A stretch of 64,000 nucleotides of DNA from Chrysopilus asiliformis (taxonomy: Eukaryota > Arthropoda > Insecta > Diptera > Rhagionidae), in contig OZ035962.1 in assembly GCA_964034945.1 (NCBI GenBank), positions 81,179,942 through 81,243,941 on the forward strand, in the 5' to 3' direction. Below the pieces are notes generated by a model. The model had not been told where the DNA came from. It searched no databases and was given only the letters and a program-made list of their open reading frames with translations. Of the stretch, positions 1,570 to 56,143 are shown piece after piece (the first letter of the stretch is position 1; every line of letters begins with the position of its first letter). The position numbers and the translations under genes were made by a program.

Positions 1570-1626
1570 TAAAGAAACATTTTACGATTTGCCCCTGGCA
1601 ATTGTAGCTTTTCTTATGTTTTTAAA
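1570..1626 (+). repeat. 3'-end fragment of repeat family D
   Basis: The sequence GCCCCTGGCAATTGTAGCTT followed by TTCTTATGTTTTT is the conserved 3' end of family D (compare 14225-14267, 22055-22090 and 60335-60363). An internal deletion joins an AAACATTTT segment directly to the terminal segment. Confidence 0.6.
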
Positions 1627-1958: not shown

Positions 1959-2361
1959 GCGAGAACTCCAATTGGGCAGAGGCAGAAGCAGAACTTTAGA
2001 ACACAGCGTCTTATGTGATGAGCTCCAATAAAGCAGCAGCAGAGGCAGTGGCAGAAGCAGAAACACATTTTAGCTCTAATCTCTAAATTTCTGCTTTCAA
2101 TTTATCCTCACAAATCGTTGTTGATATTTTTTGCGTATATGGACGGAAGTAAATATTTGTAATACTTGAAATGGAGGAGAAATTAATTGAATACTTAAAA
2201 AACAACGAAATATTATACGACAAATCATGCCGCGGATATAAATACGTACAACGTTTTGACAGGTTTCTGCTATTTTCGTCAGAATTCAAATTTCATTGTG
2301 GGACAGAAAGCAGATTCTGCTACTGCTACTGCTTCTGCCTCTGCTCAATTGGAGTTCTCCC
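1959..2361. mobile_element. Inverted-repeat (MITE-like) element with TTTAA flanks
   Basis: The left end (1961-1994) reads GAGAACTCCAATTG and then GCAGAGGCAGAAGCAG. The right end (about 2315-2360) is the reverse complement of the same text, CTGCTTCTGCCTCTGCTCAA then TTGGAGTTCTC. Both sides are flanked by TTTAA, compatible with a TTAA target site. The inner arms carry CAGCAG/CAGAGG-type triplets. The coding frames here are simply readings of the arms. Confidence 0.6.
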
Positions 2362-2366
2362 TTTAA

Positions 2367-3277
2367 ACTCAAAATTTTGTGGTCCACTGTATTCATATGA
2401 CGTCAGCTTTTCACAGAAAACGTCACTCTCACAATTTTGTTTTTGTGTGCAATAAGAAGAGCGAGTAATTCAGCATATCTAAATTGGGCATCTCTGATTT
2501 AGACTTTAAATTTAAAATATTACTTTATCCCTTAACATTATTCATTTTTTCCAAAAAAAGAAAAAAATTAAATCAAATAAAAAACAATGACTAAACACGC
2601 TACTCTCGAAAAATCTTACCTGCTGAAAAATAACACAAAGATTAGCAGTTTTTTTTCTGCTAACACTAGCAATTATCACATTTTAATCACCATTACCTCA
2701 AGTATTTCAAAACAACATTATTCCCGTTAATTTCATTCAGTTCGTCTATATTTGTTACGTGCACAGCTACTGGAAATTTCCACTTTGAAAGAGAATTTTT
2801 TTTCCTGCCATCCATAATTCAAAAACCCAACGAATTGCGAAAAACCGCCACAGAATTTGTTAAGTGAGAACCTACATAAAATGGAACGAAAATAAAATAT
2901 GAAAACAAGTCCAAATGGAAACAATATTTCAGCAAAAAAAAACATATTAGAGAAAGCACCAGAGACTTTATGGGTATATAAGAAAAATGAGTTACAGTAA
3001 AATTTCATGCATCATTTTAATTATGTGGTGATCGTCATGAATCGTTTTATGATCAGTTCTTTAGATTTTTGCCAAAAAAGATGAATTTTTTGAGACAAAA
3101 GCATAGGTGGACGATAATGATCGCATCATTATGCTGATTATTGGATATGGGAGCGCCACGATCAAAATTCGCAATCCACACATAATTTAATGATCGGCAA
3201 CAGAACCCAGCAAGCCAAGTAATTTTCTATCGTATTTTTTTTAAGGGATTTTAATGAAAGTGTTTCTGTTGTTCAAT
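2367..3277. other. AT-rich stretch, nothing recognised
   Basis: No repeat shared with the rest of the window, no TIR pair and no credible coding exon were seen. The short minus-strand open frame at 2733-3008 has no recognisable domain. Confidence 0.5.
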
Positions 3278-3870
3278 TTGTATAGGAGAAGGGGAAATTA
3301 GGGGTCCGATTGGATTTTAATGTATGGAACGGTTATGTCAAATCCACAGAACTATATAACATAGAAAAACTGTCACCATACAAGGCTCTGCTGAAAAATA
3401 GTCCCAAAAGTATTTCCCTCTTCATCGTACTTGAACGCATCCACTGAACTGTATAAGGTCGCGAAATTCAAATTTAGTTTGCCGCGAAATTCAAATTTCA
3501 CAAGTTTGAGACTAACTTTAGGCGCAAACAAATAACTTTAGGTGCCAACACCATTCCGAAAGTCTATTTTCCTTTGACAGCTCACGGTTTAAACGAGAGG
3601 ACTATATTTATTTTCATACGGTTATCTCGCTCTTACTTGACTCGTTTTGATTCACTGAACTGTATTGAAATGGGACCATTTGAGACAGCAAATCGAGCGA
3701 TCTAGTATATCTATGGTCAAATCATATTCTAAACACATTTTACCATTATAAATTTTTCAATAAGACTCACCGTTTTCGAGAAAATTGCAAAAAACTGTTT
3801 AGTTTTTATGGGGAAAGGAGGAAGGAATGGTCCAATTTTGTCCATTCCAGAACTTAGCCTAGCCATTTTT
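3278..3870 (-). repeat. Family D repeat, reverse orientation, interrupted
   Basis: Read on the minus strand, 3720-3870 carries the family D middle (GAACTTAGCCTAGCCATTTT, TTTTCGAGAAAATTGCAAAA) and 3278-3344 the family D later part (TCCGATTGGATTTTAATGTA). The two halves are separated by the element at 3345-3715, which is flanked by a duplicated GTCAAATC. In other D copies these parts are continuous (for example 14060-14160). Confidence 0.65.
3345..3715. mobile_element. 371-bp non-autonomous element with 8-bp target duplication (hAT- or P-like)
   Basis: It is flanked by identical GTCAAATC at 3337-3344 and 3716-3723, and it interrupts a family D repeat whose uninterrupted form is known from other copies, so the boundaries are well supported. 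The ends are weakly inverted (CACAGAACTATA on the left; CATAGATATACTAG on the reversed right). A motif close to CACTGAACTGTAT occurs twice inside (about 3442 and 3652). An 8-bp duplication is typical of hAT and P superfamilies. Confidence 0.65.
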
Positions 3871-4479
3871 GGTTTGGGGGGGTGTTCTAAAAAGTTGTAA
3901 ATTGGCTGGAAAGCCGAAAACTGGATTTTATAAGTTTAAAACGGCAGTCTTTGCTGTCGATGGGTTGTAATACCTCGGAAATATGGAGATTCATATGAAA
4001 GTGTAAGTGCAGAATTAAGAAAAATTTTGTTTAAAAAATCGATTTGTGCTGTTTTGAGAGAACAAAAACACATTGATATGCGCCAGCGTTGGTATCCGTC
4101 ACACATTTTCACCACCATTCATTAATCTGTTTGCTGTGGACTGTGGACAAAAAATAATCATCTCGTCATCGTCACCTTTTAACACCTCTAAGATGTGATA
4201 CCAACATCATCTTATAAAGTCATGTCAATGCCTTCTTCCATGGTGCGTCCCGGCCGGCCGTTAACTTTCCACTTTACTGTCAAACACTTCCAATTTCTTG
4301 GGTTTAACACCACACCAAAGTGCAGACCTTCGCACTCCCTTGCGATTGCAGTGATGCTGAAAAAATTGCATGCAGCATAAACCGCCATAACAGCATGAGG
4401 GCAACATTAATAGCGCAATAATTACGACTAGCGCGATAATTTTTTAAAAAGTTTGTTTTTGTCGAGAGCAACATTGAAA

Positions 4480-4915
4480 TCTAAACCACATTGAAGAGTT
4501 CCATTGCGCCGCGCGACTCCGTCTTCGTCGAAAAGTTTTCCATTTTCATTACTTCGTCGCGTCTTCGTCATTTCTTGGCCGTTAAAACTCGCTACTAAAT
4601 GGATGGATCCGAGACAAGAGATCCACCAGAGCTAATCTGCAGCGCACATAATCGTTCGTCGCGGTTACTTGGGGGCTCAATTTAAGGCCACCATTCGGAA
4701 TCGACAGCCACCGTTTGGTGGAGTGCAAAACACGTTGAACTCACAACGGATTGCGAGCGAGTGGAGCCCTATTTTGCTTCAATTTAGTTTTAGTTCAGTC
4801 GAGTTAACTTAAATTCACTTCACCTAAGCGAAGAATTCTCGTTGGCTGTTGATTTTCTTGTTAATTTCCTCACTTCACTTTTGAAGATCTCATCTTACCT
4901 TACTGGCCAAGTCTT
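4480..4915 (+). promoter_or_regulatory. Possible promoter and non-coding first exon ending at a GTAAGT donor
   Basis: Base composition rises sharply here compared with the flanks (GCGCCGCGCGACTCCG near 4507; GAGCGAGTGGAGCCC near 4755). An insect-type initiator, TTCAGTCGAG, lies near 4795. At 4915/4916 the sequence is AAGTCTT|GTAAGT, a strong splice donor. No long open frame runs through it, so it would be a 5' untranslated exon on the plus strand. It may equally be an unrelated GC-richer patch. Confidence 0.3.
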
Positions 4916-4920
4916 GTAAG

Positions 4921-6484
4921 TATTCCGCTCACCTGGTTACCTGTAACTTCATTTACCGGATTTATTTTTTTTTCCAACAAAATAAATGTTTGTGTATGCA
5001 TTTTTTTTCACCTACCTTTCGACGCTTGCCAATTCTTGGCTGGTGCTTTTTTCTTGCACTTTTCTGTGATTAACTTCAGTCATAATAAATGGTGAAACAG
5101 ACAAAAATTCAAACCTAGTCGTTTATTATTGGCGTTTTTTTTGTTCTCCGTGAGTTTTTTTTGTTAAATTTGGAAGTTTCGAAATGAGTTTTAGAGAAAA
5201 ATCTGCAAAGCAAATCAAATCAAATGGAAGACGATGTGGATCCACAAGATGCCAGTTACCACCGTTGGATATCTAATAGAATGTGAATAACAGATTAATA
5301 GATAGAAGGTATTCACTCTGCAACACATCTCACAACCATAGGTAATCATCATTTTGTCTATGAGGTGAGAATTTCCACCTGGGGCTCGTTTTATAGGCAA
5401 ACCTTAGTGACTGCGAGACTTACCACCGATTCGATTGGATTGAGGTAGCCGATGAAGAAAGAACAAAAGTTTCAATTGAATGCTGTTGATTTCAGTGCTT
5501 GCAGGAAAAAAAACTTTAAAAAAAACCTCACCGAAGGTGAAAGTCACCGTAAATTGATTGCTTTGATAGTTCACATTTTTTTTTCATCTCCTTTACTTGA
5601 GCTGAGCCGAGCATGCCAATGAAACGACGTTCATCGGAGATGTCAGCAAAATTGTTAGCAGTAGCTTAAGAAATATACATAAGAAATTGCCTGGGTGGTG
5701 GTTAATTGTAAAATTTTGAAACCGTTATTGTAGTTATTCCAATTCGCTTGTTACAACAAACATTTTTTGGTGTTATTTAGTGGTTTTTGGTAGGAAATTT
5801 GAAAACGTTTTGGAGACAATCATCGAATTGTAATTTTTTCTTAATTTTTTTACTTATATAATTTAAAATAATTTAAATGACTGTAACGCCTTGTTTGAAT
5901 TGCAGAAAACTTGCAGAAGTTTTGCTCTCGGCGAGTAATTTTCTCCAAATTAAAATACCTAAAATTTGTAAATTTAATTACTGTACAAGAGGTGAATTTT
6001 AACTTCTGGGGGGTGAATGTCATTTTCACTTGCAAAATGACTCTCCAAGAGCAAAATTTCTGCGAGTCAGAAGACTAATAGTTGAAAACAATGTTGCAAA
6101 TAAGGAAAGAAAAACCTGTATAAGCACCTAGATAAATCCTATTAGCAAGGTAGAAATCTATTAAAGCTGACTCTGACGAAGGTCAACTAGATGCCAAACC
6201 CCAAATAGACTTCTAGCAGGTTCATAGAGCAAACAACTCTGGCTAATTAGGAATAATTTTTCGGAAATTAAGAAGAATTTTTGTTAAAAACCTGTGTTTG
6301 AAAATGACTTTCAATACACGCAATTATGTTTAAATTGGCAAAAAACGATAGCTAACTGTCAGATTAAACTCATGTTTAAAACCATAAAAAACCACAGCAA
6401 GCTGTCTGTTTAAACTTTTGTTTAACAAAAAGCTATGTTTAAAAATGACTATGAATATGCTCCAAAGTTCAGGATATGTTTTAA
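4921..6484. other. AT-rich stretch, nothing recognised
   Basis: If the donor at 4916 is real this would be intron. Poly-T runs are common. No shared repeat, TIR pair or credible exon was found. Confidence 0.5.
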
Positions 6485-7042
6485 ACATAACAAAAGCTAT
6501 AATTGCCAATCTGGCAATTAATGAAAACCCGTATGGTGATATTCGTATCAAAATTCGAACAGTTGTACCAAAATTTCACTTTGAAATCAAACTTTCCAAT
6601 AAGATTTTTTAAAATTTATTCTAATCGGATTTTTATGTATGGGAGTTTTATGTAGAATCATATTCTAAATAGCTTTTGTTCTTGCACTTTTTTGATGAGA
6701 TGCACAGTTTTTGCGATATTTACAAAAAACGTTTTCGTTCGTATGGGGGATACCCCCCCTAATGGTCCATTTTTGACCATTAACGAACTTGGCCTCGCAT
6801 TTTACGAAAAACGAATCTGCGCAAAATTTCAAGTCTATAGCTCAATCCGTGCGCCCGCAATCCGCGCCACAGACAGACAGACAGACGGACAGACAGACGG
6901 ACGGACATGCAAAATTCAACTTGTTTTTATCATTCTAAACACACTGGTGTAATTCATTTTTTTGTGTGATGACGGGATCTTGGCGTTACAAACGGTAAAG
7001 CAAAGTTAATATACCCTTTGGTTTCACCATACGGGTATAAAA
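6485..7042 (-). mobile_element. Family C element (Helentron/INE-like, non-autonomous), full length
   Basis: In minus orientation the element begins at about 7042 with a hairpin, ATACCCGTATGGTGAAACC followed by AAAGGGTAT. It then carries a GTCY microsatellite (6868-6905 on the plus strand, GACAGACAGACGG type). It ends near 6485 with another hairpin, TTGCCAGATTGGCAA, then TATAGCTTTTGTTATGTTT. This matches the second complete copy at 51904-52484. A 5' hairpin, central GTCY repeat and 3' hairpin are the layout of dipteran INE-1/DINE elements, which are Helentron relatives. The assignment is by architecture, not by sequence search. Confidence 0.65.
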
Positions 7043-7095
7043 ACTTCCTAAGCAACCATTTGCGACTCAGGCTCAAATGTGACCCTGGTCGCAAA

Positions 7096-7226
7096 GTAGG
7101 GGTTGTAAATCAGTTTATGTGACGGTTGCCTTGTGTCCGGTCACAATAAAATCATTTGCAAATTGTTTGCTTTGTGATAGGTCACAATAAAACCGTTACA
7201 AATCGGTTGCTTTGTGACCAGTCGGA
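7096..7226 (+). repeat. Short tandem repeat, about 42-bp unit, three degenerate copies
   Basis: Three units contain GGTTGCTTTGTGACC-like and GGTCACAATAAAACC-like text (about 7121-7163, 7164-7204, and a partial 7205-7226). The two half-sites GTGACC and GGTCAC make each unit partly palindromic. Confidence 0.6.
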
Positions 7227-7229
7227 AAG

Positions 7230-10200
7230 TTGTTTTTTCTTGTTTCTCTCAAGCTCGTTTATAATTTTTTAAAAAGACCCTTTTTAATGTTTTCTAAAGA
7301 AAACAGTAATAAAAAGTGATAATCCCAATCGAAACCAGTACAATGTCCTACAAAACAGCAATTATGTCCGAAGGCCACATTAAATATTGAAAAAAATTAA
7401 ATACTTGTCTCTAAATGAAAATCGAACATTAAAAATTAATAATGACTTAATAACATTTCTCCCTTTCCTCTAATTAAAATTTCATAAATCACAAGCGAAA
7501 ATATGACTTTGTAAATTCTTTATGTTGTGCTTTTAACCATTCCAAGGCCTCAAATAATTATAACAAAAAAATATTTTTTATTGCCTAATCGAAAGATCGA
7601 TAAGCCAATAACTCCTCCACACGACGCAACAAATTGACATAACAAAAAAAAACACCAAGAGTCGTTGAAATGGCGTCATAGTCGACATGTTTTCACACCG
7701 AATATGGAAAACGGTGAGAATTTCATTAAAAAACGATTTATCTGTGAAGTATGGATTTATTTTGAAGCTTTTGAACAATTATTATTTAATTTTTGACTAA
7801 AAAACCGAAAAAATTACCTCATGTCAGCCATTTTGTTAATCTAACAAATAACGATCAAATATTGAAGAAATGGGCACCCGTCTTGATTCAATCTACAAAA
7901 TGCTGAAAAAATGGCAAACAAAAAATGCTTTCAAGAAAGCACAAAACAATCGATTAAAATTAAAATGTTGCCTAAAGTGAAAATAACTATAAAAATGCAA
8001 TATCTTCGTCGCCATGTCATGTTATTTTGATAAAAAAAATGTAAATGGAGCAAAAGAATTCGCTCGTACGGGTATTTTCTGTAGAAAAATATCTTAAAAT
8101 TATGCGAAATCTTTGAATCTTCACTACTCGGATGAAAATAAAGAAAACTTATGTACATACAAAAATAGTCATCACCTTAATAACGACAAATAATAATTCT
8201 TTGTGACACTCAATGACCACCATTTTTATTTCGATACTACTTCTTTTTAGTGTTGTCGTTATTTCTTTATTCGTTTTGTAATTGCTGTCATTGTGTAGTG
8301 ATTTTTTTTTTGCTTAAATTTAAAGTTTCTCAAAGTCTTCATCATTTTCGTCCATTACACGTTCCGTTCACTGACTTAGTTTTCATTTGATGCGAAATAA
8401 GAAATTTCCAGAAAAAAATGGGAAAAAAAGAATCTAAGAAAATATTGAAATGAATTTCGTTAATTTGTTTTTTTTTGGCTCTCTTTTTTTGGTTCGATTA
8501 TTTTGTTGTTGTTTTATGTGTGTCAAACATTTTTGCAAATCAAACAAACATACTTTGGGTTCTGAATGTTTTTTTCGACGTTAAAAACACGTCATGACCT
8601 TGGAATTTTGTATAAATTAATTTCAATAGCATAAAAAATGAACTTAACTTGCACGGAGTTTAAATAAAATCTAACCAATCAACACACCAATGAATTTAAC
8701 CAATGAGTCAAATTCATACTCATTTAACACGTATAGGTACTCTAGCAATCACACAAGGAATACACTGTGCCTGTGTAGAACAATCTAAAGTTAAATATGG
8801 CATGCCATGATTAAAGGTATGCATAAAATATGTGAAATTGCTGATAATTAAATTTCTTTGAATAGTAATTCTTGTTGTTTTCACAAGAATAGCAAATAAT
8901 TACTTGAAAATTAAGGCGTGCGTTAATATCGTAAGCCACATGTGCAAATTTTTTGTTGTTGTTTTTGATCAAAATGATATTTTTGTGATATAAAACGGGA
9001 AATTGAAAAAAAGCAACATCGAAAATCGAAATATGTCAAATTTTCGCTCTTAAATTAGTAAAAATAAATGTACAGCAATTGGAAAAAAATATTGAACATC
9101 GACAGCATAAGAAAAAGATACTTAATTACATATGCGGGTAGAGTAGAGCACAAAATCTTATAAAAATGAGTCTCCAGCATCGATAAATTGCAAAACCCCC
9201 ACTTTTTGGGCCAAAAAAAGGAAAAAAATGACGCTTTCCGAGTGAACTGAGTGTGGAGGCCTAAGAACATATAAAAGCAGTTCACCGAAATTTTATTGCA
9301 CTCAATTTACCAACACACCAAAGAAAAAACTCACACACACACACACAGCAACATTTCCAGTCATGTGTGCCATTTTTTCTTGAGACGAAATTGAGAACGG
9401 AATCTGAAAAGCTCCTTAAATAACACAACATAATCTCGCGCTGTCTTCAACTTGAGTTCAAATTCAACCACATTGATAGCCAGTATTGGCGAAAAACAGG
9501 TGTACACGATACAACCATGCCATACAACATAAGTGTCACTTCTCGAAAACCCATTTATGAAATGGGAAAAATGAATGAATGAAATTCAAAAATAACCGCG
9601 CGGTCGCTTATGATAATTGAGTTTGTAAATCAGTTCAGTGGAACGCTGGCTGCTGGACAATGTTTGAGTTATCAAGCCATCTAATGGTGATTTAGTAATT
9701 AGATTTGACATTTAGATTTTTCAAAATGGAGTATAATTATAATTGGGCAATTTAAAAATGGCAACGATTATCGATAGTTTTTGTAACTCAATGGCTTTTG
9801 TCGATATCGCAGCAGTGTGAGTGAATTTATTAGTTTTTAATTTCATTACCCGAATCCCCTCCCCCGTCCCTCCACTTTCCAACTTCAAAACCCGAATTAT
9901 TTCTAAAAACTACACTCATTTTTGTGACGTTACTTTTTAATTGACTTCAAAACTTCCACTGAACTGAAAAACATTAGAATTTTGTATAGGTTATATATTT
10001 GAATTTAGTATTTGTCATGGATGATATATTGTAATAAAATTAACTTCTGGATAGCAAATGTCATATTTTTGTCGACTTTATTACCGCATAAATATAGTTT
10101 GCAATGCACACCAGATATAATCTGTTCACTCACCTTCATATCTTTAAAAATTGCTTAGCGTGAAGGCAAGTTTAAAATGATTGTGTCGCAAAGAAACAAC

Positions 10201-34604: not shown

Positions 34605-35200
34605 TTACTTTCCTCTGCTATAGAGGGAAAGTATTGTATTCATGATGGAGACCGACTCGATATGAGGAATAGCATGAGGATGTCGTCCGTGCACATGTCT
34701 GTTGTTCTGTCCGTTTTATGAATCTTAACCCTTTGTGGACCAGGAAGTGAACAACAATAAATCAGTAACCATGACATTTTTTCGTTGAAAATGGTTCCAG
34801 AAAGCATTTTAAAAAAGGGTTAACTAACCCGAGAATGCGTTGAGCTAGAGACCTGAAATTTTTTGCAAATGATTTTACGCAAATCGTGGTTTTCTATCAA
34901 GTTTTATAAAAGTAACGGTAGCTATAAAAAAAGCCTTCCATACAATTTTTTTTTGAATACAATTTTGTAAACTTTTTTCGAAAACTATGAGCGTTTGAGA
35001 AAAAATGCATATAACAAGATTTAAAGGAAATAAAATTTTCTACATTTTTTTGCTTTAACGGTTTTTACGTATCTCTGATGATTCTCAAGATATTTGGAAA
35101 AATTCAAGAAAAAATGCTTATCAATTTCTAAAGGAATAAAGTTTGCATTTTTTCCTGCATTTAAAATCTAGATTTTTCCCGGTGATTCGATTCTTGTTTT
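34605..35200 (+). repeat. Family B repeat (plus orientation), broken by a mariner
   Basis: The 5' end is a hairpin, TACTTTCCTC...GAGGGAAAGTA (34607-34634), then TTGTATTCATGATGGAGACC. TAACCCGAGAATGCGTTGAG and GAAATTTTTTGCAAATG follow as in 20455-21086 reversed. Similar text resumes after the mariner (ACGGTTTTCGAGATATTTGA, 36058). Confidence 0.6.
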
Positions 35201-35204
35201 TGGA

Positions 35205-36053
35205 AGGGAAATCGCGCAGCGAAATCAAAGAGCGCTTGGAAAGACCGCGTGGGTCATATCCTGCATGAAATTTTGGGCATTAAAAAGCTGTCGGCGCGAT
35301 GGGTGCCGCGTTTGCTCACTCCGGACAACAAGCGCAACCGTGAAACCACTTCACAGCAGTGTTTGACGCTGTTTAAGCACAATCCGAAGGAGTTTCTGCG
35401 TCGTTTCGTGACCGTCGACGAAACATGGATCCACTGGTACACACCAGAGACTAAGGAACAGTCGAAACAGTTTACCGGGCGAACGTGCTCGGAAGAAGGC
35501 AAAGACTGTCCTATCTGCCGGAAAGGTGATGGCCACCGTTTTCCGGGATTCACAGGGTGTGATCTACATCGACTACCTGGAGAAGGGCCAAACGATCACA
35601 GGGCTCTACTATACCGAATTATTGGGCCGATTCGACGCCGAATTGCAGAAAAAACGGCCCCATTTGTCGAAGAAAAAAGTGCTCTTCCACCATGACAACG
35701 CACCGGCTCACACCTCCGCCGTCGCCACGGCCAAATTGGTCGAATTGGGCTACGAACTGCTGCCCCATCCACCGTATTCTCCAGATTTGGCCCCGTGCGA
35801 CTTCTTTTTGTTTCCAAACTTGAAAAAGTCACTCGCCGGGCAGAAATTTGAGTCGAATGAGGAGGTCATCGCCGCTACGGAGGCCTACTTTGCAGATCTC
35901 GAGAAAACGTATTTTTCAGACGGGTTAAAGAAGTTGGAGCATCGCTGAGTCAAGTGTATCGAGCTAAAAGGAGACTATGTTGAGAAATAAATGGTCACTT
36001 TTCCAAAATTTTCGTTTTTTTTTGTAGGCTAAGTACTTATCGGACTGCCCTCG
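35205..36053 (+). pseudogene. mariner transposase relic, 5' truncated and frameshifted
   Basis: A mariner-family transposase would cut and paste its own element at TA. Recognisable text starts near 35205 (about the second helix-turn-helix). Then come KKLSARWVPRLLTPD, the first catalytic Asp in TVDETWIHW (about 35413), the second in HHDNAPAHTS (about 35690) and the third in YSPDLAPCDFFLFP. The last two are separated by 34 residues, the mariner D,D34D signature. Roughly the first 40% of the ~345-residue family length is missing. The frame changes near 35215-35255 and again near 35478-35490, so no active enzyme can be made. The stop is at 35946-35948. The surviving 3' end is at 36020-36053, followed by TA. 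Confidence 0.85.
36020..36053 (-). repeat. mariner 3' terminal inverted repeat
   Basis: Read inward from the right it is CGAGGGCAGTCCGATAAGTA then CTTAGCC, a mariner-type terminus, followed outside by TA (36054-36055). No matching 5' end exists, consistent with the truncation. Confidence 0.7.
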
Positions 36054-36266: not shown

Positions 36267-36656
36267 TGTTGCATAAGAACTAAGAAACCCTTTTCATCTA
36301 GAAATAAAAATTGAGATAAACCTATTAAAGAATACTACTAGGTTTAAACTACACGGAAAGAATTATTTTCTAAAAACCAAGAAAATTGCTATATAAATCG
36401 AGAACATGGGGAATAGTTCTCGTCCAAGTGAACATTTTCTTGATTTAAAACAATGAGAAACGATTGTAGAAATTCTTGAATTTTGAAAGTTTTAGAATAT
36501 ATTTTCTAAATGTAAGAAAAAACGGATTAAATCCTGAAAATAATGGTTGAAAAACAATTCTAGAAATCAGATATTATTTCTACATTCCATCATTAATTTC
36601 TTATTAAATCTTTGTGACCAAGTAAAAATTGATTATTTTGAGAAATGACGGAATAC

Positions 36657-37040
36657 TATTTTCTGATATATCTAGAAATGGGTTCTTAACACATTCGTTT
36701 CTAGAACAAAATCGATCAATTATTGCCTGATATTAGAAGTTACCGCTCAGTATTTTCTAGTTGCCTAGAAATTTATTCTTATCATATTCCTTTCAAGAAT
36801 AAAGTTAGAAAATTGCTGTTTTAGGTGATGCGAAATCCATCAAAAATTTCTTGATGTTAGAGCAAACCGTTCAGTATTTTCTACTTGTGCAGAAATAAAT
36901 TCTTAATACATTCCTTTCTAGAGCAAAGTTAGAAATTTGTTTTTAAAATTCTAGTAAAAATGATCAAATATTTCTTAATTTTAGAAAATATCTTCTAGTC
37001 AGCCAGCAATAAGTTCTTACAATATTCCTTTGTGGACTCC
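36657..37040. repeat. Subterminal tandem repeats of the TIR element, ~94-123 bp unit
   Basis: Units begin at about 36657, 36751, 36874 and 36989, each with TATTTTCT..., a TTCTTA...ACATTCCTTTCTAGA block and AAGTTAGAA. The copies are degenerate. Similar motifs (ATTCCT, TTTTCTAG) occur in the opposite end zone at 44600-44700. Confidence 0.6.
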
Positions 37041-37200
37041 ATAACCCCGCGACTAAAAATTTAGTTGCAAATTCAAAGCGCTGTCGGCCCTTATATTGCA
37101 AATATTAGGATACAAGAATAAAAACAGAAAAATGCATGAAATGTTTGTCTTCAATAATATTTTTATTTTTTATTGAATTTTATGACAAATAAGTTACAAA

Positions 37201-37204
37201 AACT
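37201..37204. repeat. Target-site duplication AACT of the Ty3 element (left copy)
   Basis: AACT here and at 43371-43374 flank the LTRs exactly. A 4-bp duplication is usual for Ty3 elements of the Mdg3 type. Confidence 0.85.
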
Positions 37205-37398
37205 TATAAGGCCACTTCTAGGTGAACTCCCGGAAGCGTCATGCTTCGATTGACATCTGAAACTTAGTGTCCTAACTCCTCTCGGTATTCCGAGCGAGAA
37301 CGTTTCAAACGACAGTCGACCTCCTCCGAGAGCTACCCTACCACCACTAAGGTGGCTGGCGCAGTAGTTAGTATCCTCAATTAGTTTTCATGCTTACA
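37205..37398 (-). repeat. 3' LTR
   Basis: Read on the minus strand it starts TGTAAGCATG and ends GGCCTTATA, so the inner terminus is not the usual CA. No difference from the other LTR was seen over 194 bases. No AATAAA lies inside. The purine stretch just upstream (minus strand, GCAGGAAGGCCGAAC) is a weak polypurine tract. Confidence 0.85.
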
Positions 37399-37827
37399 GT
37401 TCGGCCTTCCTGCGACATCACTGTCCCAGTGATCCCGAGTTGGGCCTTCTACTTAACACCTATTCTACTCAACTTATGCTACTTATGATTACGACTAAGC
37501 ACTGGCGCACCAAATTCCAGATTGAATTTAGAACCCAGATACTCGTCCATGCTATTAGTGGTTAGTTTTTTTTCCAGTTGGATCCAAATACAGAAGCGCC
37601 AGCTTCTCAAAGCACACAGCTTTCCAAAGCACACAGCTTTGCAACTTATTTCGAACTCGAGTTCCGTCTTGACTCACTAATCCATTAGTGGAGTTAACAA
37701 TAATTACCATTAGGGTGTACAGCGCCAGGACCCACAACAGGAACATCATCATTGAGTTGGGCGGAGAGGTAGGAGGTCAGTGTTTACCTAGCTTGCCAGT
37801 AATTCAGCCGATGATTATTATGATATT

Positions 37828-37917
37828 TAAAAAAGAGTTTTTTTTTTTATTTTTTTTTTTTTTTTATTTTTTTTTATTTTTTTTTTTTTTTTTTTTTTTT
37901 TTATTTTTTTTTTTTTC
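37828..37917 (-). repeat. A-rich tract in the retrotransposon 3' untranslated region
   Basis: On the minus strand this is almost pure A with scattered T and G, about 90 bases, between the Gag-Pol stop and the 3' LTR. On the plus strand it makes a spurious Phe-rich frame. The remainder of 37399-38128 is non-coding. Confidence 0.8.
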
Positions 37918-38128
37918 TTTTCCAAAATAATTCAAGTAATTGAAATCAATTAATTAACATAAGAATAATTCAAGTAATTCAAGTAATTTTAATCAATTAA
38001 TTCACATAAGAATAATTCAAGTAACTCAAGTAATTCAAATCATCTAATTCACATAAATAGGTTAGGAAATAAAACGGAAACAAATTCAAAATTTCTCATC
38101 TAATAACTACATGATCTCGATTCATCGT

Positions 38129-41100
38129 TCAGTCTTGATCATTATCTTCGTCATTATTCACATCTAACTCGTCAAATTGGCACCACGGCTTAAGACGATC
38201 GGCGGCCCAAACAGAGGAAAACGATCGGCCGGAAATTTTAATCCCGGGAGGGTCCGTGATAAGGTACCGATCCTTTCCAAGGACTTTAGAAACCATGTAA
38301 GGTCCCTTAAATTTTGGCAAATGTTTTCGCGGAGCCCCCGTCGCCGCTGGTTCGGATTTTAGTAGCACAAAATCTCCTTCTGCATAAATTCGTGGCGGAA
38401 CATGTCTTTCATTAACCCTTTCAGCCTGACGCTTGCGTTCGGTCAGAATTCTGTCCGCAGCTCGGTTACGTAATTCACTCAAGGGTATTAATTCTTCGTG
38501 GTCAGTGTTCCTCATAGCGAGGTCACTATGTAGATTCGCCGTTAAAGTATTCTGCAATAGGCCCTTTGGATTATACCCTAACAGTAATTGCTGTGGTGTC
38601 TGGCGGGTTACTTTGTGCGGTAAACAATTCAGGCCCCATTGAATTTCCTGTAGGTGAGCGTCCCAATCACGACCATCAGCCCGCTCTGTGGTAGTTGCTA
38701 TGGCCGTTCCCACGGTACGGAAATATCTCTCAATCTGCCCATTCGCACGGGGAGTCTGAACTGCCGTTTTGATATGCCGAATACCGTTATCTTCACAAAA
38801 TTGTTGAAACTCGCGGGACGTGAAGGCCGTCCCTCGATCGCTCACGATGACCGTCGGTATACCGAAAAATTGAGACAGATCTTTAAGCGTTTTGATCACA
38901 TAATTCGTCCGCGTACTTCGAACAGGTCGGAGAATCACAAACTTTGTGAACGAATCAATCACCCCTACGAGATGTTCATTTTGCTGACTGCTTTTGGGGT
39001 AAGGCCCGAGGTGATCAATATGGATAGTGTGAAAAGGAATGGCCTCTGTCGGAAAAGTATTTAATTGGTAATTCGTTTCATCTTTTCCCCTCTTGTTATA
39101 AGCGCATTGCATGCAATTATCCAAAAACTTTTTGGCGAATACCCTCATATTTGGAAACCAATAGGTTTTCTGTGCATGCAGTAACGTCCGATCTAATCCC
39201 GGGTGCCCTAAACCATCATGCGATGTCCGCAAGATTTGCCACCGAATGCTTTTAGGGACGACGAATTTATTGCCATCCTTGGTTTTCTTAAATAACCTCC
39301 CGTCTTTGAGGATGTACTCGCGGGCTGTTGTAGTATGCTTTTTATTGTTCTCGTCTTCCAGAATTGTTGTTATTTCAACTAGGTCACGGTCTTTCTTTTG
39401 AAGAAGACTCACCCAATCCTTCTCTTGAAGCGTTACAACCTGGATGTTATTGGGGTTTGCCGCGCTATTAAGGTTCGTTGTCCTATCTTTGTTCACATCG
39501 AGTCCTCCCGCTTCCATTGAAACTTCATCTCCTGCCTCGAGAGGTTCCACCCCTTTGTGGCAAGTGGCTCTACTTAAGGCATCCACGTGCCCCATTTTCG
39601 TTCCGGGTCGATATTCCAACTCAAAATCGTATTGCTGAATCTTCAGCCACCATCTAGCGATGCGGGGTATTAGATCTATTTGTTTTTTTGTAGCACGAAG
39701 AGAAGCACAGTCGGTCACTATTTTAAAATGTTTCCCCATGAGATAAAACTTGAATCTTTCCAAGCTTTCTACTACTGCTAGAGCTTCCAGCTCGAAACTG
39801 TGGTATTTCTGCTCGCAAGGGGTTGTAGCCCGACTAAAGTAAGAGACTGGACGTCGAATATTTTCCTCCGTAATTTGTAATAGAATTCCGGCGAGGCCTT
39901 TGGAACTTGCGTCCGTGTGTAGCTCATGATTTGCATGTGGTTCATACAATGCAAGAACAGGCCGCTCAGACAATTGTTTAGTAAGTTCCCTGAAAGATTT
40001 TTCCTGTTCATCGCCCCACTGGAATTCGATCCCCTTTTTCAACAATGACGTCAACGGCAACGCAATTCGAGCATAGTTTTTAATAAACCGGCGGAAATAG
40101 CTACTTAGGCCTAGGAACTGCCTAATCTGCGAAACGTTTTCAGGAACTGGATAATTCCGGATTTCATCTGTTTTTCCCAGACCGGGACGTACTGATCCAA
40201 AACTTACTTCGTGGCCTAGGAAATTTACCGAGGAATTAAAGAAAGAACATTTTTTTAAATTCAATGTAACATTGGCCTCCCGGAGCACTTCAAGCAGCTT
40301 TTGCAGTACCTCTATGGTCTCCTCCACCGTTTTGCAAGCTATTAATATATCGTCCATATAATCAATCAACCTGGCGTCATTTACGCGCTGCGCGATTCGT
40401 TTCATCAACCGTTTAAAATTTGCGGGCGCGTTGGTCAATCCAAACGGGACCGTAAGGTATTGATAATGGCCTTCGGCGGTGACGAAAGCAGTCAAGTGTC
40501 GACTTTCTGGGTGGAGCGGAATCTGGTGGTAACCGCTCATAAAGTCTAAGCTTGTATATACTTTTGCGCTTGATAATGAATTTAAAGACTCCTCAATATT
40601 TTTGGTTGGGAATCTTTCCTTTCGCGTGACATCATTAAGGAGGCGATAATCCACACATAAGCGGAAACTACCGTCTTTCTTTTTCGTTAACAAAACCGGG
40701 CTCGCAAACTCAGATGTGGACTCCTCTATTAGGTTGTTTCTCAAAAGATCCTCAATAATTTCTCTCAATGGTGCTCGGTGGTGAAAGGCCACTCGATTTG
40801 GCCGTACATGAATAGGCGTCTCATCTGTTAAGTTTATTCTCATCTCTGCCCAGTTGGTTTTCCCAAGTTCCGACGTTTTCATGGCAAAACAGTCGCGATA
40901 ATTATTAATTAACTCTGTCAATTGCTTTATGCTGTCCGTCTGAGTAAGGTCTCCGAACACGATGTCATTCTCCGTGATTTGCGTAACTTGCATTTGTCGA
41001 GACTGTGAAGGGTTAGGTAAAGGATTGGTTATCAAATTCTGACTATCCGGGATAGAATCCCTTAAAACCCGTAGTTCCCCCCAACGTTTAATGACTTGAA

Positions 41101-42409
41101 CTCCGGGTTGGTTGGTAAACGTTTGGCCTATCATGACTGGGGTTTCCTGAGCGGAATCTGGAACGACGAGAATATCGGTTGGCGCAGACACATCGCCTAT
41201 GGTGATTACTTTACATATTTTACCCACAGCCTCACAAGTTCCACCGCCGAATCCACTCAGAATTCGCTTAGAATCGTGACTAATTTGCCATCCCTGGGCC
41301 CGACAGTCTGATTGTCTGATTGTACACACCTCACTGCCCAGATCGATAAAGGCCTCTATGGGTCTTTCATCTATCAAAACCACCTGATGCAATTCACTTT
41401 TCGTGGCTCCCGTTACTAACCGTATTTTCGACGTGGCTTGTGTAGGAGACTGGTTTTTTGAGGGGCATTTGGCAGCCATGTGTCCGGGTTGTTTACAATG
41501 ATAACACGACCCCTTAAAGATTCTGGTATTACCCGCGGCATCACTGCGAAATTGATTTTGGACTCCCTGAGGCTGATTGGGGAACGAATGATTTTGACGA
41601 TTATGAAACGAATGATGTTGGCGATTGGGACCCGAATGAACTAATGGTGACGATAGATTTCTTGCCGTTTCTGTTAATTGGCCCCTCGTATACGAATGGG
41701 AAGGAATGCTAATTCCACGACTATGACTCGGCTTATTGAGGCTTTCGTAGTATTTAATTCTGGCCAGTAACTGTATGGGATCTGTAAACGTGCTTGCCAT
41801 TAGTACCGTTTTTAGATTTGGGTCCGTAATTCCCGAAATTATATACTTAATCGTGGTTTCGTCATTCAATTTTATTGACTTGGCCATTGCTGAGATTTCA
41901 TAGACGAAACTTTCAATCGGTTCTTCGCGTTTTCTTTTCCGATTCCTCAATTTCTCATGAACGGACGCCTCATCTATCGCGCATGGGAAACTCCGTATCA
42001 AATCCGTCTTAAAAGTTTCCCAGTCTAGGAAAACTCCTTCTCGCGTTTGTAACCAGAATTGTGCCGCCTCACGCAATCTAATTGTGGCGTATAGTAAGGT
42101 CGCCCGGTCGTCCCATAAATAGGCCGATTTGAGTCGTTCAATATGTTGGACCCATCGTTTCGCGTCCAAACTTGTCGGATTTCCCGGCCGAAATTCCGGT
42201 ATTAACCCACGAATTTCTTCCATGCCCAACTTCATGGTAATATTGCCCAACGACGACACGCACTGATCCTGCATCGGCTGAGAAATTGAACTCGATACGC
42301 CCGGCGACGACTGAATCATCGATTGCGCCTCTGCGTCTTTTCCTGATCGCTTTCCTTCCACGACCCGACGAGTCGCCGTGCCCCGACCCCGTCTACTTGA
42401 CCCCGACAT
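38129..42409 (-). CDS. Gag-Pol polyprotein of the Ty3 element
   Basis: The protein has 1,426 residues from ATG at 42409 to TGA. Order: Gag (1-300), one zinc knuckle C302-x2-C305-x4-H310-x4-C315, protease with D356-L-G instead of the usual DT/SG, reverse transcriptase with catalytic D622 and YMDD at 684-687, and RNase H with D832, E873-region and D900. Integrase follows: HHCC zinc site H1064, H1069, C1099, C1102; catalytic D1132, D1191, E1227 (35 residues between the last two); and a GPY/F-type motif KFKGPY at 1366-1371. No chromodomain and no envelope. The frame is unbroken and could be active unless the protease change matters. Codon use is clearly less AT-rich than the surroundings. Confidence 0.95.
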   Translation of the reverse strand: MSGSSRRGRGTATRRVVEGKRSGKDAEAQSMIQSSPGVSSSISQPMQDQCVSSLGNITMKLGMEEIRGLIPEFRPGNPTSLDAKRWVQHIERLKSAYLWDDRATLLYATIRLREAAQFWLQTREGVFLDWETFKTDLIRSFPCAIDEASVHEKLRNRKRKREEPIESFVYEISAMAKSIKLNDETTIKYIISGITDPNLKTVLMASTFTDPIQLLARIKYYESLNKPSHSRGISIPSHSYTRGQLTETARNLSSPLVHSGPNRQHHSFHNRQNHSFPNQPQGVQNQFRSDAAGNTRIFKGSCYHCKQPGHMAAKCPSKNQSPTQATSKIRLVTGATKSELHQVVLIDERPIEAFIDLGSEVCTIRQSDCRAQGWQISHDSKRILSGFGGGTCEAVGKICKVITIGDVSAPTDILVVPDSAQETPVMIGQTFTNQPGVQVIKRWGELRVLRDSIPDSQNLITNPLPNPSQSRQMQVTQITENDIVFGDLTQTDSIKQLTELINNYRDCFAMKTSELGKTNWAEMRINLTDETPIHVRPNRVAFHHRAPLREIIEDLLRNNLIEESTSEFASPVLLTKKKDGSFRLCVDYRLLNDVTRKERFPTKNIEESLNSLSSAKVYTSLDFMSGYHQIPLHPESRHLTAFVTAEGHYQYLTVPFGLTNAPANFKRLMKRIAQRVNDARLIDYMDDILIACKTVEETIEVLQKLLEVLREANVTLNLKKCSFFNSSVNFLGHEVSFGSVRPGLGKTDEIRNYPVPENVSQIRQFLGLSSYFRRFIKNYARIALPLTSLLKKGIEFQWGDEQEKSFRELTKQLSERPVLALYEPHANHELHTDASSKGLAGILLQITEENIRRPVSYFSRATTPCEQKYHSFELEALAVVESLERFKFYLMGKHFKIVTDCASLRATKKQIDLIPRIARWWLKIQQYDFELEYRPGTKMGHVDALSRATCHKGVEPLEAGDEVSMEAGGLDVNKDRTTNLNSAANPNNIQVVTLQEKDWVSLLQKKDRDLVEITTILEDENNKKHTTTAREYILKDGRLFKKTKDGNKFVVPKSIRWQILRTSHDGLGHPGLDRTLLHAQKTYWFPNMRVFAKKFLDNCMQCAYNKRGKDETNYQLNTFPTEAIPFHTIHIDHLGPYPKSSQQNEHLVGVIDSFTKFVILRPVRSTRTNYVIKTLKDLSQFFGIPTVIVSDRGTAFTSREFQQFCEDNGIRHIKTAVQTPRANGQIERYFRTVGTAIATTTERADGRDWDAHLQEIQWGLNCLPHKVTRQTPQQLLLGYNPKGLLQNTLTANLHSDLAMRNTDHEELIPLSELRNRAADRILTERKRQAERVNERHVPPRIYAEGDFVLLKSEPAATGAPRKHLPKFKGPYMVSKVLGKDRYLITDPPGIKISGRSFSSVWAADRLKPWCQFDELDVNNDEDNDQD

Positions 42410-43162
42410 GGCAATTGATCAATAACTAACACCGGTCTATTTATGTAAATTTTACACTTGGTTCTATCAAATTAATTTTCCAAAATTCATAAAAGTTTAT
42501 AATAAAATTGTCTTAGCTTTTGGATGGGTTACCACAACCACCCGTTTCTTCCCTCGATGGGTAAACCTGCCTCTTCCTCCAATTTTCTCGCCCGAACTCG
42601 TGCACGATCCTGCTTGATTTTTCTAACAATGTCACTGCACTGAGAAAACCTACAATGGCATAAATTTTTCCACTTTTGTTTTTACTTTAACTTCAATCAT
42701 TCAAATCAATTCAAATCATAAGATTTCTATTGTTTTTCCTAGGACTACTACAATTCGCATCTATCTCCGATCATGATCACTTGTCGAATAATATTTTCTA
42801 ATAATTTCATCACACGACGAAAACCGGTTATCTTGCTCGGCTAGGCTAACAGCGATCGAATACAAACAACGATCAACTCTGGCGGCTGAGTATCCGCATG
42901 TATGTGTGGGTTTACGAGCCTTAGCACCGGCAACACAACAAAGCGACTGCATGGCAGTTACATAAATGTGTGTGCCTTTGTTGCCAATTCTCGTCCAACA
43001 CCATACGGTATAGTCTCATACCCCGCACTCCGAGCTGCTGTTCGTCTTCCACCGGTGACTCATCGCTGCATTTTTGTGACACTGAACTTTTATCTTCGAT
43101 GAATGATCTTCCCTTGCCGTTTCCAGGATTTGCACTTTCCACTTTTTACTGTGAGCTGATAA
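42410..43162 (-). other. 5' untranslated leader of the Ty3 element
   Basis: It lies between the primer site and the Gag start. It is less AT-rich than genomic flanks and holds only short frames (for example 42902-43197) that show no domain. Confidence 0.7.
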
Positions 43163-43174
43163 TTCCACTTCTGA
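43163..43174 (-). promoter_or_regulatory. Candidate primer-binding site for tRNA-Leu
   Basis: The plus strand reads TTCCACTTCTGA, which closely matches the 3' acceptor end of insect tRNA-Leu (CCCACTTCTGACA before CCA). It sits immediately inside the 5' LTR. The outer three bases complementary to CCA are absent, so priming would be slightly internal. Confidence 0.6.
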
Positions 43175-43176
43175 TT

Positions 43177-43370
43177 TATAAGGCCACTTCTAGGTGAACT
43201 CCCGGAAGCGTCATGCTTCGATTGACATCTGAAACTTAGTGTCCTAACTCCTCTCGGTATTCCGAGCGAGAACGTTTCAAACGACAGTCGACCTCCTCCG
43301 AGAGCTACCCTACCACCACTAAGGTGGCTGGCGCAGTAGTTAGTATCCTCAATTAGTTTTCATGCTTACA
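43177..43370 (-). repeat. 5' LTR
   Basis: Identical as displayed to 37205-37398 (offset 5,972). It is followed outside by AACT at 43371-43374. TGTAAG at its outer end supplies the stop codon that truncates the host reading frame. Confidence 0.9.
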
Positions 43371-44314
43371 AACTTCTTAATTTTTTAACAATTAAATATT
43401 TACGGTGTATATACTTTTTGTTCCAACTAGTATCTAGTATATATGGTTGGCATGACAGATCACAAAAACTGGCGTACTTTGCTTTTCTAGCTTCGATGGC
43501 GTCTTTGAGATCCAATTCGGAATCAACTTGAAGTATTAGACCACGTTGTGAGTCGGCTATGCTGAGTTTCCAGATTTTTTTGGGATCATCTTTCCGTTTT
43601 ACTTGCCCAGTCGGTGTTAAAAAGAAATGGAGACATTGGCATATGGTAAAGTGACAATCATTGACATCTGAAACAAAGAAATGGAATTATCAGCTAAATA
43701 ACATTCTAATAAAGGCTTTCAATTAATATTACAATAGAAAGGATAATTGTACTTGGATTATATTACGGAAAGTTACGGTATTTTTTTAAAAAAATATGTT
43801 TACCTTTAAATTCGAGTGAAAGAAGGAGTTTCGTTTGATCTTTTTCTGATCCAATTCTTAAAAATTGAGGTACAATTTTTTTCCATCCTTCAAGAAGCCC
43901 GCAGCCGTTTGAAAAGAGGGCATCGAAGTCAATATCTATGTAAATTGAAAGAATTGTTACTTTTTTACTTAGATGGAAAATAATGGCTTACCAATCGTGC
44001 TCCGGACGAATGCCTCAATGCTGGCCATTCGTCTACCAGTTTTTTTTATATTATTAGTTTTTTTTTGAACTGGTGGGAACGTAATTTGCTCGTAGGTTTC
44101 CACTGCAGTTCTACACAATCCCATGGTTCGCGATAGTGCTTTAGCCAAATTTGGCATTGCTGAATCTCTCTTCACCTTTGTTAATAAAAAAATTATTATT
44201 AAATTGATTATAGTTTTAAAACGAACTTTGAAAATATGGGTACTGATCTTCCATTCCCCATTCCTTTAACACAGCAAAAAGTTTTTCGTCAACTGGATTA
44301 TATTGCTGCTCCAT
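43371..44314 (-). CDS. Exons 1-4 of the SAM-like gene, part upstream of the Ty3 insertion
   Basis: This part codes for about 228 of the 240 residues. At the junction the reading frame enters the LTR as AGT T|TG TAA, so the LTR provides a stop codon after one extra Leu. The transcript could still give a nearly full protein missing only the last 12 original residues. Gene and retrotransposon lie in the same orientation. The peptide is Lys-rich with no signal peptide or membrane segment. A TCAGTT initiator-like motif lies 60 bases upstream of the ATG. Confidence 0.6.
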
Positions 44315-44373
44315 GCTAATAAACTTTTTCAACTTACTCACCGAACTAACGCACGCTGCGACGGATTACGAAC

Positions 44374-44379
44374 AACTGA
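44374..44379 (-). promoter_or_regulatory. Initiator-like motif upstream of the SAM-like gene
   Basis: The minus strand reads TCAGTT about 60 bases before the ATG at 44314. This matches the arthropod initiator TCAGTY. No TATA box is evident at the expected distance. Confidence 0.35.
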
Positions 44380-44519
44380 GAACTAACTCCGTGCGTTTTT
44401 TGAATTTCATTTTCGTATGTCTCGCATTTTTTCGAGTCGGTTCGGGTGACACGAGACTTCGAGAATTTGAAGATTTGAAAGAACGATCCCAGAAAACATT
44501 ACTAGATCGATCTTAAAGT

Positions 44520-45172
44520 TCTGAATTCAATCAAATAGTTCCAAATCAGATAGAAAATGCAGTCTTGAAGTAAGAATTAGTTTTCTCGAATCGTCCTCAA
44601 AATGATATTTTCAGAGTAGAAAATCTTCTGATAGTACATACAAAAATGTTCTCAAATTAAGAAAGGAAGATTTTTATTTTCTAGCTCTAGAATATTCCTC
44701 TTAATTCAAGCATTCTGGAGTCACATAGGGCGCCAAACTTAGTTTTACAAACCGAATGAAAACATTTTGCTTTAGAAAATATTTTCTTATTTTAATTCTT
44801 GAGTTCTGAATACAAAAAAGTAATGATCCCACAAAAATAGTCAATGAAGTCCGAAAAAATAAATCATTTTCTTTAACTCGAGAAAATATTTTCTTATTTT
44901 TATCGCTATTTAATTAAATTGCGTATTTCGTGGATTTACTTTCTTAGATCTAGATTTACTTTCTTAGATCTAGAAAACTTTGTTGATCACTAAAAGATTG
45001 ATTTAAGAATTGCTTAGTTTCTTGAAATCAGATTTTTTTTTCTCATAATGAGAAAGTGGTACTTAAAACAATATAAAAGTTCTCATTTTAAGTTGATTTT
45101 TCTCAAAATTCGATTTTCTCGAATCAAGAAAACCTGTTTCTAGAAAATAGAAAATTATTATTTTCCGTGTAG
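44520..45172. repeat. Right subterminal zone of the TIR element
   Basis: A 20-bp direct repeat, ATTTACTTTCTTAGATCTAG, occurs twice head to tail (44934-44953 and 44954-44973). GAAAATATTTTCTTATTTT occurs near 44775 and 44882. Motifs TTTTCTAG and CTCGAA echo the left subterminal zone. No coding potential is seen. Confidence 0.55.
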
Positions 45173-51461: not shown

Positions 51462-52541
51462 ATACTCTATATGATATATCATAGTAGGATATTAGATTTA
51501 GGATACCGTTTGTAACGCATCGAACCAATCATGGGACACAAAATGAACTACACCAGGGTGTTAGGGATGACAAAAGATTTTCATTTCCGCATTTCCGCAT
51601 TTCCGCCCCTCCGTGAACACCATAGCTTTCGAAAGGATTAAGCTAGAAACTTGAAACTTTGTACAGTTATGTTTCTCGTAAATAGTTAGTCTAAGTTCTT
51701 GAATGGGAAAAATTGGACAATTCCTTCCCCTCTCCCCCATACAAACCAAACAGTTTTTTGCAATTTTCTCGAAAACGCTGAGTCATATTGAAAAATTTAT
51801 AAAGGCGAAATGTGTTCAGAATAGGATTTTACATAACTCATCCATACACCAAAATCCAATGGGACCACTCCTTTCCCTTTCTCCTATAGAAATGCATTTT
51901 TTTATACCCGTATGGTGAAACCAAAGGGTATACTAACTTTGCCTTACCGTTTGTAACGCCAAGATCCCGTCATCACACACAAAAATGAATTACACCAGTG
52001 TGTTTAGAATGATAAAAATAATTATTAGAATGATAAAAATAATTAAATTTTGCATGTCCGTCTGTCCACCCGTCTGTCCGTCTGTCCGTCCGTCTGTCTG
52101 TGGCGCGGATTGCGGGCGCACGGATTGAGCTACAGACTTGAAATTTTGCACAGATCCGTTTTTCGTAAAATGCGAGGCTAATTTCGTCAATGGGCAAAAA
52201 TGGACCTTTAGGGGGGGTACCCCCCATACGAATGAAAACTTTTTTTCTGAATATCTCAAAAACGGTGCATCTTATCAAAAAAGTCCAAGAACAAAAGTTA
52301 TTCAGGATATGATTCTACATAAAACTCCCATACATCAAAATCCGATTGGAATAAATTCTAAAAAATCTTATTGGAAAGTTTGACTTCAAAGTGGAATTTG
52401 GATAAAACTGTTCGCCATTCACTTAAATCACCATACGGGTTTTCAATAATTGCCAGATTGGCAATTATAGCTTTTGTTATGTTTAAATAAACATTTTGTC
52501 TGTCATCATATAAAGTATTTGACGACAATTGTAGCTTTTCT
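51462..52541 (+). repeat. Family D repeat interrupted by a family C element
   Basis: The first part, 51462-51903, runs from TATACTCTATATGATATATC to CTATAGAAATGCATTTTTT. It resumes at 52485 with AAATAAACATTTTGTCTGTC and ends GACGACAATTGTAGCTTTTC (52540). In uninterrupted copies these two parts are adjacent. Confidence 0.75.
51904..52484 (+). mobile_element. Family C element, full length, inside family D
   Basis: The 5' hairpin ATACCCGTATGGTGAAACC / AAAGGGTAT starts at 51904. It is followed by a GTCY array (52053-52100), GCGGATTGCGGGCGCACGGA, the GGGGGGGTACCCCCC palindrome (52211-52225) and the 3' hairpin TTGCCAGATTGGCAA (52449-52463), ending near TTATGTTT. The insertion is within a run of T, the target preference reported for Helentron-type elements. 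Confidence 0.7.
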
Positions 52542-55813: not shown

Positions 55814-55840
55814 CCCCCCCCCCCCCCCCCCCCCCCCCCC
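55814..55840. repeat. Poly-C tract (27 C)
   Basis: It corresponds to the C-run of the family C palindrome, 6-8 C in other copies, expanded to 27 at the truncated edge of a family C fragment. Confidence 0.9.
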
Positions 55841-56143
55841 TAATGGTCCATTTTTTTTGCCCATTAACGAACTTAGCCTTGCATTTTACGAAAAACGAAT
55901 CTGCGTAAAATTTCAAGTCTCTAGCTCAATCCGTGCGCCCGCAATCCGCGCCACAGACAGACGGACAGACAGACGGACAGACAGACGGACAGACGGACGG
56001 ACGGACATGCGAAAATCAATTTTTTTTTATCATTCTAAACACACTGGTGTAATTCATTTTTTTGTGTTATGACAGAATCTTGGCGTTACAAACGGTAAGG
56101 CAAAGTTAATATACCCTTTGGTTTCACCATACGGGTATAAAAA
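55841..56143 (-). repeat. Family C fragment (5' half, minus orientation)
   Basis: TAATGGTCCATTTTTTTTGC, AATCCGTGCGCCCGCAATCC, the GACAGACGGACA array (55953-56007) and the 5' hairpin CCATACGGGTAT at 56127-56138 match 6755-7042. Everything on the other side of the poly-C is missing. Confidence 0.7.

What the first reader, a model, noticed from the sequence alone, without database searches (positions are those of the whole stretch)
36349..45172. TIR-bounded element carrying a spliced SAM-like gene but no recognisable transposase
Inverted CTACACGGAAA ends, TAAA duplications and motif-rich subterminal zones enclose a four-exon gene with consistent splice phases. After removing the young retrotransposon the unit is ~2.65 kb. 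Either a DNA element captured a cellular gene, or this SAM-like protein belongs to a little-described transposon type. The protein text recalls a dispersed family of SAM-containing proteins in animals (recollection only).
Basis: partly seen in the sequence, partly recalled or inferred. Interest (0 to 1): 0.8.

Follow-up and report, generated by a model that had tools for sequence, protein, structure and literature searches.

The report
CACTA-like transposon with SAM gene remnant
This stretch of a genome (probably an insect's) is a transposon that has no transposase of its own but still carries a broken copy of a SAM-domain gene, and a related, complete element elsewhere in the same genome carries that gene right beside a transposase, which may help explain why such unnamed SAM genes are scattered through insect genomes.

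Summary
The element is real, but three details of the finding are wrong. Three further copies without the retrotransposon (aligned pieces 95.8-99.2% identical) show that the ends are CACGGAAA...TTTCCGTG (36352-45169), not CTACACGGAAA, and that the target duplication is 2 bp (TA, TA, TA, TT), not TAAA. The 'four-exon gene with consistent phases' is an artefact: exon 2 matches its protein family in another frame, which holds a stop, and that frame holds stops in all four copies. The gene belongs to a SAM-domain family with 81 scored matches in this genome. The window element is thus a non-autonomous member of a CACTA-like lineage whose resident second gene encodes a SAM-domain protein. Both ends carry motif-dense zones (19 and 16 sites per 700 bp; at most 6 in 1,060 other windows). 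That the SAM protein is the TnpA-like partner binding such zones is inferred, not tested.

The parts
36350..36351 (.). target-site duplication, left copy (TA)
   Evidence: equal 2-bp flanks in 4 of 4 copies: TA, TA, TA, TT
36352..36359 (+). left terminal inverted repeat CACGGAAA
   Evidence: shared by all four copies, while the bases before it differ in L108
36352..37048 (.). left subterminal zone, rich in TTCTAG/CTAGAA and ATTTTCT/AGAAAAT
   Evidence: 19 sites in 36349-37048 against 1 in the 700 bp outside; cross-validated between the two ends
36709..36956 (+). two tandem copies of a 124-bp unit inside the left zone (72% alike)
37204..43370 (-). later LTR retrotransposon insertion: identical 195-bp LTRs, one 1,429-codon gag-pol-like frame (38129-42418); absent from the three other copies
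43390..43671 (-). SAM-family gene, exon 4 block (C-terminal domain; the last ~80 residues of the family are not found)
   Evidence: tblastn and profile; own-genome relatives E 9e-8
43841..43945 (-). SAM-family gene, exon 3 block (IDIDFDALF...), out of phase with exon 2; short against L130 at its start
43968..44153 (-). SAM-family gene, exon 2 block in the family frame, with an in-frame TAA
   Evidence: P0007 E 3.5e-6; L118 E 7e-6; 1, 4, 4 and 2 stops in the four copies
44228..44314 (-). exon 1: first 29 codons, resembling the start of a SAM domain; the rest of the SAM domain and the linker are missing
   Evidence: 1 of 3,000 shuffles as good against P0014, but no match to P0009 or P0004; L112 E 0.025
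44473..45169 (.). right subterminal zone with the same motifs
   Evidence: 16 sites in 44473-45172 against 0 in the 700 bp outside
45162..45169 (-). right terminal inverted repeat (TTTCCGTG)
45170..45171 (.). target-site duplication, right copy (TA)

Best explanation
36352-45169 is a non-autonomous CACTA/EnSpm-like (CMCT-clade) DNA transposon. Its lineage carries two genes: a SAM-domain protein gene and, just downstream, a C2H2-DDE transposase gene. This family kept the ends and a decayed copy of the SAM gene and was moved in trans by a transposase encoded elsewhere. Shown: four copies, their ends, 2-bp duplications, the homology of the gene, stops in its exon 2 in all four copies, and the two-gene order in a related element. 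Inferred: movement in trans, and that the SAM protein works like TnpA of maize Spm, binding the palindromic subterminal motifs and bringing the ends together through SAM self-association so that the DDE transposase can cut.
For: Four copies share the ends and have 2-bp duplications. Zones are cross-validated. The gene matches the family profile at E 5.8e-11, best of 2,000 shuffles 0.67. L130: one 6,985-bp element (TIR match 11 of 13, TA/TA) with the SAM-family gene and an 819-residue transposase frame; its left end CACTCAGAGAAA is letter for letter the end fixed by six other SAM-gene copies, L122-L127. L131: the same gene order. Transposase beside the SAM gene in 2 of 20 loci with 1.5-kb flanks, and in 0 of 28 control loci plus the window. 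The transposase shows D, D, C(2)C, H(3)H, E in order, as PMC12730594 states for this clade (passages).
Against: Only one two-gene element with both ends was seen; no second copy of it was compared. The same TIR scan returned a pair in L131 (10 of 13) that does not enclose the genes, so it has false positives. No transposase with CACGGAAA ends was found; that genome search did not complete. The window's TIR and motif differ from those of L130, whose ends hold only 2 and 4 of the window's motif sites. DUF4218 scores 19.2 bits, below its cut-off of 27.
Confidence: 0.86

Rival explanations
1. Capture: the SAM family is a cellular multigene family, and a DNA element picked up one copy, as gene-capturing elements do.
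For: SAM domains are common in host proteins; the window unit has no transposase; many family members were seen only as proteins, without their DNA context.
Against: The family lies inside or beside elements of the same clade in several independent groups: L130, L131, and the copy groups L122-L127 and L112/L113/L120 with ...GTG ends. Near-identical paralogues are dispersed over contigs.
Confidence: 0.07
2. Chance neighbourhood: in a repeat-rich genome the SAM genes and the transposases lie side by side only by nested insertion.
For: Only two loci show the pairing, and they are 2 of 20; the genome is rich in repeats.
Against: Same order, same strand and tight spacing in two diverged loci (11 bp from stop to ATG in L130; matches end at 4478 and begin at 4476 in L131); 0 of 29 controls; an aphid protein, P0002, joins the same two families.
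Confidence: 0.04
3. The element is as described, but the SAM protein is not TnpA-like: it acts on the host side (anti-silencing, chromatin targeting) or regulates expression.
For: No DNA-binding domain was recognised in the family; only a SAM domain and an unassigned C-terminal domain.
Against: Dense paired motif zones call for a binding protein; maize Spm sets the precedent of two element proteins needed for transposition (PMC1636069, passages). Neither is a test.
Confidence: 0.45

Closest known systems
CACTA/EnSpm superfamily within the CMCT clade (PMC12730594), with the animal TRC elements such as SmTRC1 (PMC1636069)
   Same: 5'-CA..TG-3' ends, short (2 bp) duplications, DDE transposase with C(2)C and H(3)H, paired motif zones, two element proteins
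   Different: the second gene encodes a SAM-domain protein; the animal TRC ends reported there begin CCC (passage), these begin CACGG or CACT
Maize En/Spm with TnpA and TnpD
   Same: works-like comparison: an accessory protein beside the transposase (passage); subterminal repeats and the end CACTACAAGAAAA are recalled, not looked up
   Different: no sequence comparison of TnpA with the SAM family was made
TET/JBP-carrying fungal DNA transposons (PMC12730594, passages)
   Same: DNA transposons with a resident non-transposase gene found across many copies
   Different: an enzyme gene gained by several superfamilies there; here a SAM-domain protein in one CACTA-like lineage
SAM/DUF4769 insect proteins (PF15992)
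   Same: the window gene is a decayed member by profile
   Different: annotated in databases as uncharacterised genes, not as transposon genes (names seen)

Membership tests
CACTA/EnSpm-like (CMCT clade) | 5'-CA..TG-3' termini | tested here: met
   CACGGAAA...TTTCCGTG in 4 of 4 copies; CACTC.../...CAGTG in L130. The clade statement is from PMC12730594 ('in most cases')
CACTA/EnSpm-like (CMCT clade) | 2-5 bp target duplication | tested here: met
   2 bp in 4 of 4 copies: TA, TA, TA, TT; TA in L130
CACTA/EnSpm-like (CMCT clade) | DDE transposase with C(2)C and H(3-4)H, encoded by the element | tested here: not met
   absent from the window element and its three copies, so the window is at most non-autonomous; present in the related element L130: D 303, D 396, C(2)C 418, H(3)H 620, E 643 region
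CACTA/EnSpm-like (CMCT clade) | Transposase_21/DUF4218 similarity of the related transposase | tested here: inconclusive
   DUF4218 E 0.0011, 19.2 bits against a cut-off of 27; Transposase_21 not listed
SAM-domain/DUF4769 insect protein family | family C-terminal and middle regions | tested here: met
   profile E 5.8e-11 for the protein; blocks of 1.2e-10 and 2.7e-12 in two frames
SAM-domain/DUF4769 insect protein family | complete SAM domain in the window gene | tested here: not met
TnpA-like accessory protein (function) | binds subterminal motifs and is needed for excision | not testable with these tools
   needs binding and excision assays

The most novel reading that the evidence does not exclude
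A widespread, unnamed family of SAM-domain proteins in insects is the second, TnpA-like gene of CACTA-type transposons. SAM-driven oligomerisation on arrays of palindromic subterminal sites assembles the transposition complex, each element family having its own co-evolving motif (TCTAGA-type here, TTTAAA-type in L130). Elements that keep only the SAM gene, such as the window's family, are a recurrent outcome.
Probability: 0.4. Interest if true: 0.78.

Novelty: new variant of a known kind. Interest (0 to 1): 0.66.

Why it matters
Genomes are full of repeated 'uncharacterised' genes that annotation counts as host gene families. This ties one such family, seen here in tephritid flies, aphids, thrips, a firefly and ants, to a transposon lineage and supplies a two-gene element and its ends. 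It also offers a concrete candidate for the second protein of animal CACTA elements: the SmTRC1 authors expected a TNPA-like role for their own second protein but found no relatives of it in other animals (PMC1636069, passage). SAM self-association as a way to pair transposon ends becomes directly testable.

Tried and rejected

Considered and dropped: 4-bp TAAA duplication; piggyBac, hAT and Sola-like elements (duplication size does not fit; from general knowledge); an intact SAM gene; an isolated Rhagoletis match at 34894-34790 (E 0.005-0.012), taken as chance. One slip: P0027, a SAM-family protein, was left in the transposase query set and produced that match.

Full report
What was claimed.

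Ends and zones. The two 11-mers are the only matches in the window at up to one mismatch. This alone means little: the window holds 1,653 perfect 11-bp inverted pairs 1.5-10 kb apart, 28 with equal 4-bp flanks. Far stronger is the composition beside them. Sites of TTCTAG/CTAGAA or ATTTTCT/AGAAAAT number 19 in the 700 bp inside the left end and 16 inside the right end, against 1 and 0 in the 700 bp outside; 1,060 other (overlapping) 700-bp windows have a mean of 1.04 and a maximum of 6; 0 of 1,000 dinucleotide shuffles of either zone reaches the observed count. Those words were picked from the zones, so I cross-validated: 7- and 8-mers chosen in one zone alone give 16 to 22 sites in the other and at most 9 elsewhere; 6-mers give 17 and 24 against at most 11.

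Copies. The genome (429 Mb, 42 contigs; window at C3:81179942-81243941) became searchable late and only at times. The bare 11-mer occurs 387 times, against 256 for the reversed control pattern. The right 852 bp has copies on C2 (98%), C4 (98%) and C1 (99%, in two pieces split by an insert of about 566 bp). All three run from end to end, lack the retrotransposon and carry the gene; aligned pieces are 95.8-99.2% identical to the window. They share CACGGAAA...TTTCCGTG; outside stand TA/TA in the window, L107 and L109 and TT/TT in L108; lengths are 2,612, 2,604 and 3,211 bp. So the element proper is 36352-45169, 'CTA' is target sequence, and the duplication is 2 bp.

The retrotransposon. Its LTRs (195 bp) are identical and enclose a 1,429-codon frame. 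It sits in the 3' end of the SAM-like gene, in the window copy only.

The gene is broken. Relatives elsewhere in the same genome agree on that frame (L118 E 7e-6). It holds 1, 4, 4 and 2 stops in the window, L107, L108 and L109 and cannot be joined in phase to exon 3. Compared with L130, exon 3 also starts short (my reading). Most of the SAM domain, the linker and the last ~80 residues are missing. Exon 1 matches the SAM start of aphid P0014 (1 of 3,000 shuffles as good) but not P0009 or P0004. Since all four copies are broken, the family probably spread with a dead gene and was moved in trans (inference; independent decay after spreading is not excluded).

Where the gene family lives. P0014 gave 81 scored matches in the genome (of 179 candidates; a lower bound), on C1 to C5, several in near-identical groups. 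The window's own copy is not among them, being too diverged. The tool gave loci for 20, with 1.5-kb flanks. In 2 of these 20 (L117, L129) a transposase gene lies beside the SAM-family gene on the same strand; 0 of 28 control loci plus the window contain it (230 kb against 68 kb). The 20 are not independent: some are copies of one another. Longer stretches of the two are L130 and L131. In L130 a scan for CAC...GTG inverted ends with equal 2-bp flanks returned one pair: 696-7680, CACTCAGAGAAAA/CACTGAGAGAAAT (11 of 13), TA on both sides, 6,985 bp. Its left end CACTCAGAGAAA is identical to the end fixed by six other SAM-gene copies, L122-L127. The pair encloses the SAM-family gene (matches from 6161 to 3964) and, 11 bp after its stop codon, a transposase gene: 819 open codons, 811 from the first ATG. 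That protein starts with a C2H2-like finger and contains LYMD (303), LGDN (396), CRFC (418), HLLLH (620) and FESKH (643): the D-D-C(2)C-H(3)H-E order given for the CMCT clade in PMC12730594 (passages). DUF4218 gives E 0.0011, below its cut-off. L131 has the same order with the two matches almost touching, but the scan found no pair around both genes there, only an unrelated one of 10 of 13. A Myzus protein, P0002, joins transposase-family residues (to 356) to SAM-family residues (from 356), which suggests that the two are neighbours in aphids too, though its gene model may be faulty and its order is reversed.

Mechanism. Shown: a CACTA-like lineage with a SAM gene beside a DDE transposase; copy groups in which only the SAM gene was seen; paired, family-specific subterminal zones (TCTAGA-type here; TTTAAA-type in L130, 38 sites against at most 25 elsewhere). 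Inferred: the SAM protein is the counterpart of TnpA. In maize Spm both tnpA and tnpD are needed and TNPD stabilises TNPA on DNA; the SmTRC1 authors expected an analogous DNA-binding role for their second protein but found no relatives of it (PMC1636069, passages). A self-associating SAM protein on arrays of palindromes would be a natural end-pairing device. I give this role about 0.4; no DNA-binding domain was recognised in the family.

Verdict. A known kind of object, a non-autonomous CACTA-like element, with an unexpected resident gene: a new variant of a known kind. Limits: one two-gene element with both ends; the mover of the CACGGAAA family not found; host unnamed; Repbase not searched.

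Noticed in passing
L130 (C3:33012200-33020200) 696-7680: A 6,985-bp CAC...GTG element with TA/TA flanks holding a SAM-family gene and a C2H2-DDE transposase frame 11 bp apart; its ends are rich in TTTAAA-type words.
   Followed up: yes
L122-L127; L112, L113, L120: Two other copy groups carrying the SAM-family gene, with right ends ...CTCTGAGTG and ...CTTTCAGTG and no transposase between gene and end.
   Followed up: partly
L084-L086, L091-L093, L096, L097; L082:2869-3927: Other genomic sequences that share the letters CTACACGGAAA but not the element: eight of the 28 loci begin CTACACGGAAAA(A/T)T..AGG(T/C)TCAAA; L082 has two inverted ends 1,059 bp apart.
   Followed up: no
protein P0002 (Myzus persicae LOC111027115): Gene model that joins C2H2 and part of the DDE transposase family to the C-terminal domain of the SAM family, near the place where exon 3 starts in the window gene.
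   Followed up: partly
35186-35948: Mariner-like transposase remnant in two overlapping frames, about 400 bp left of the element (identified by eye).
   Followed up: no
6480-7043, 51899-52487, 55834-56143: Dispersed repeat family, 86-89% alike, containing short tandem CAGACGGA-like units.
   Followed up: no
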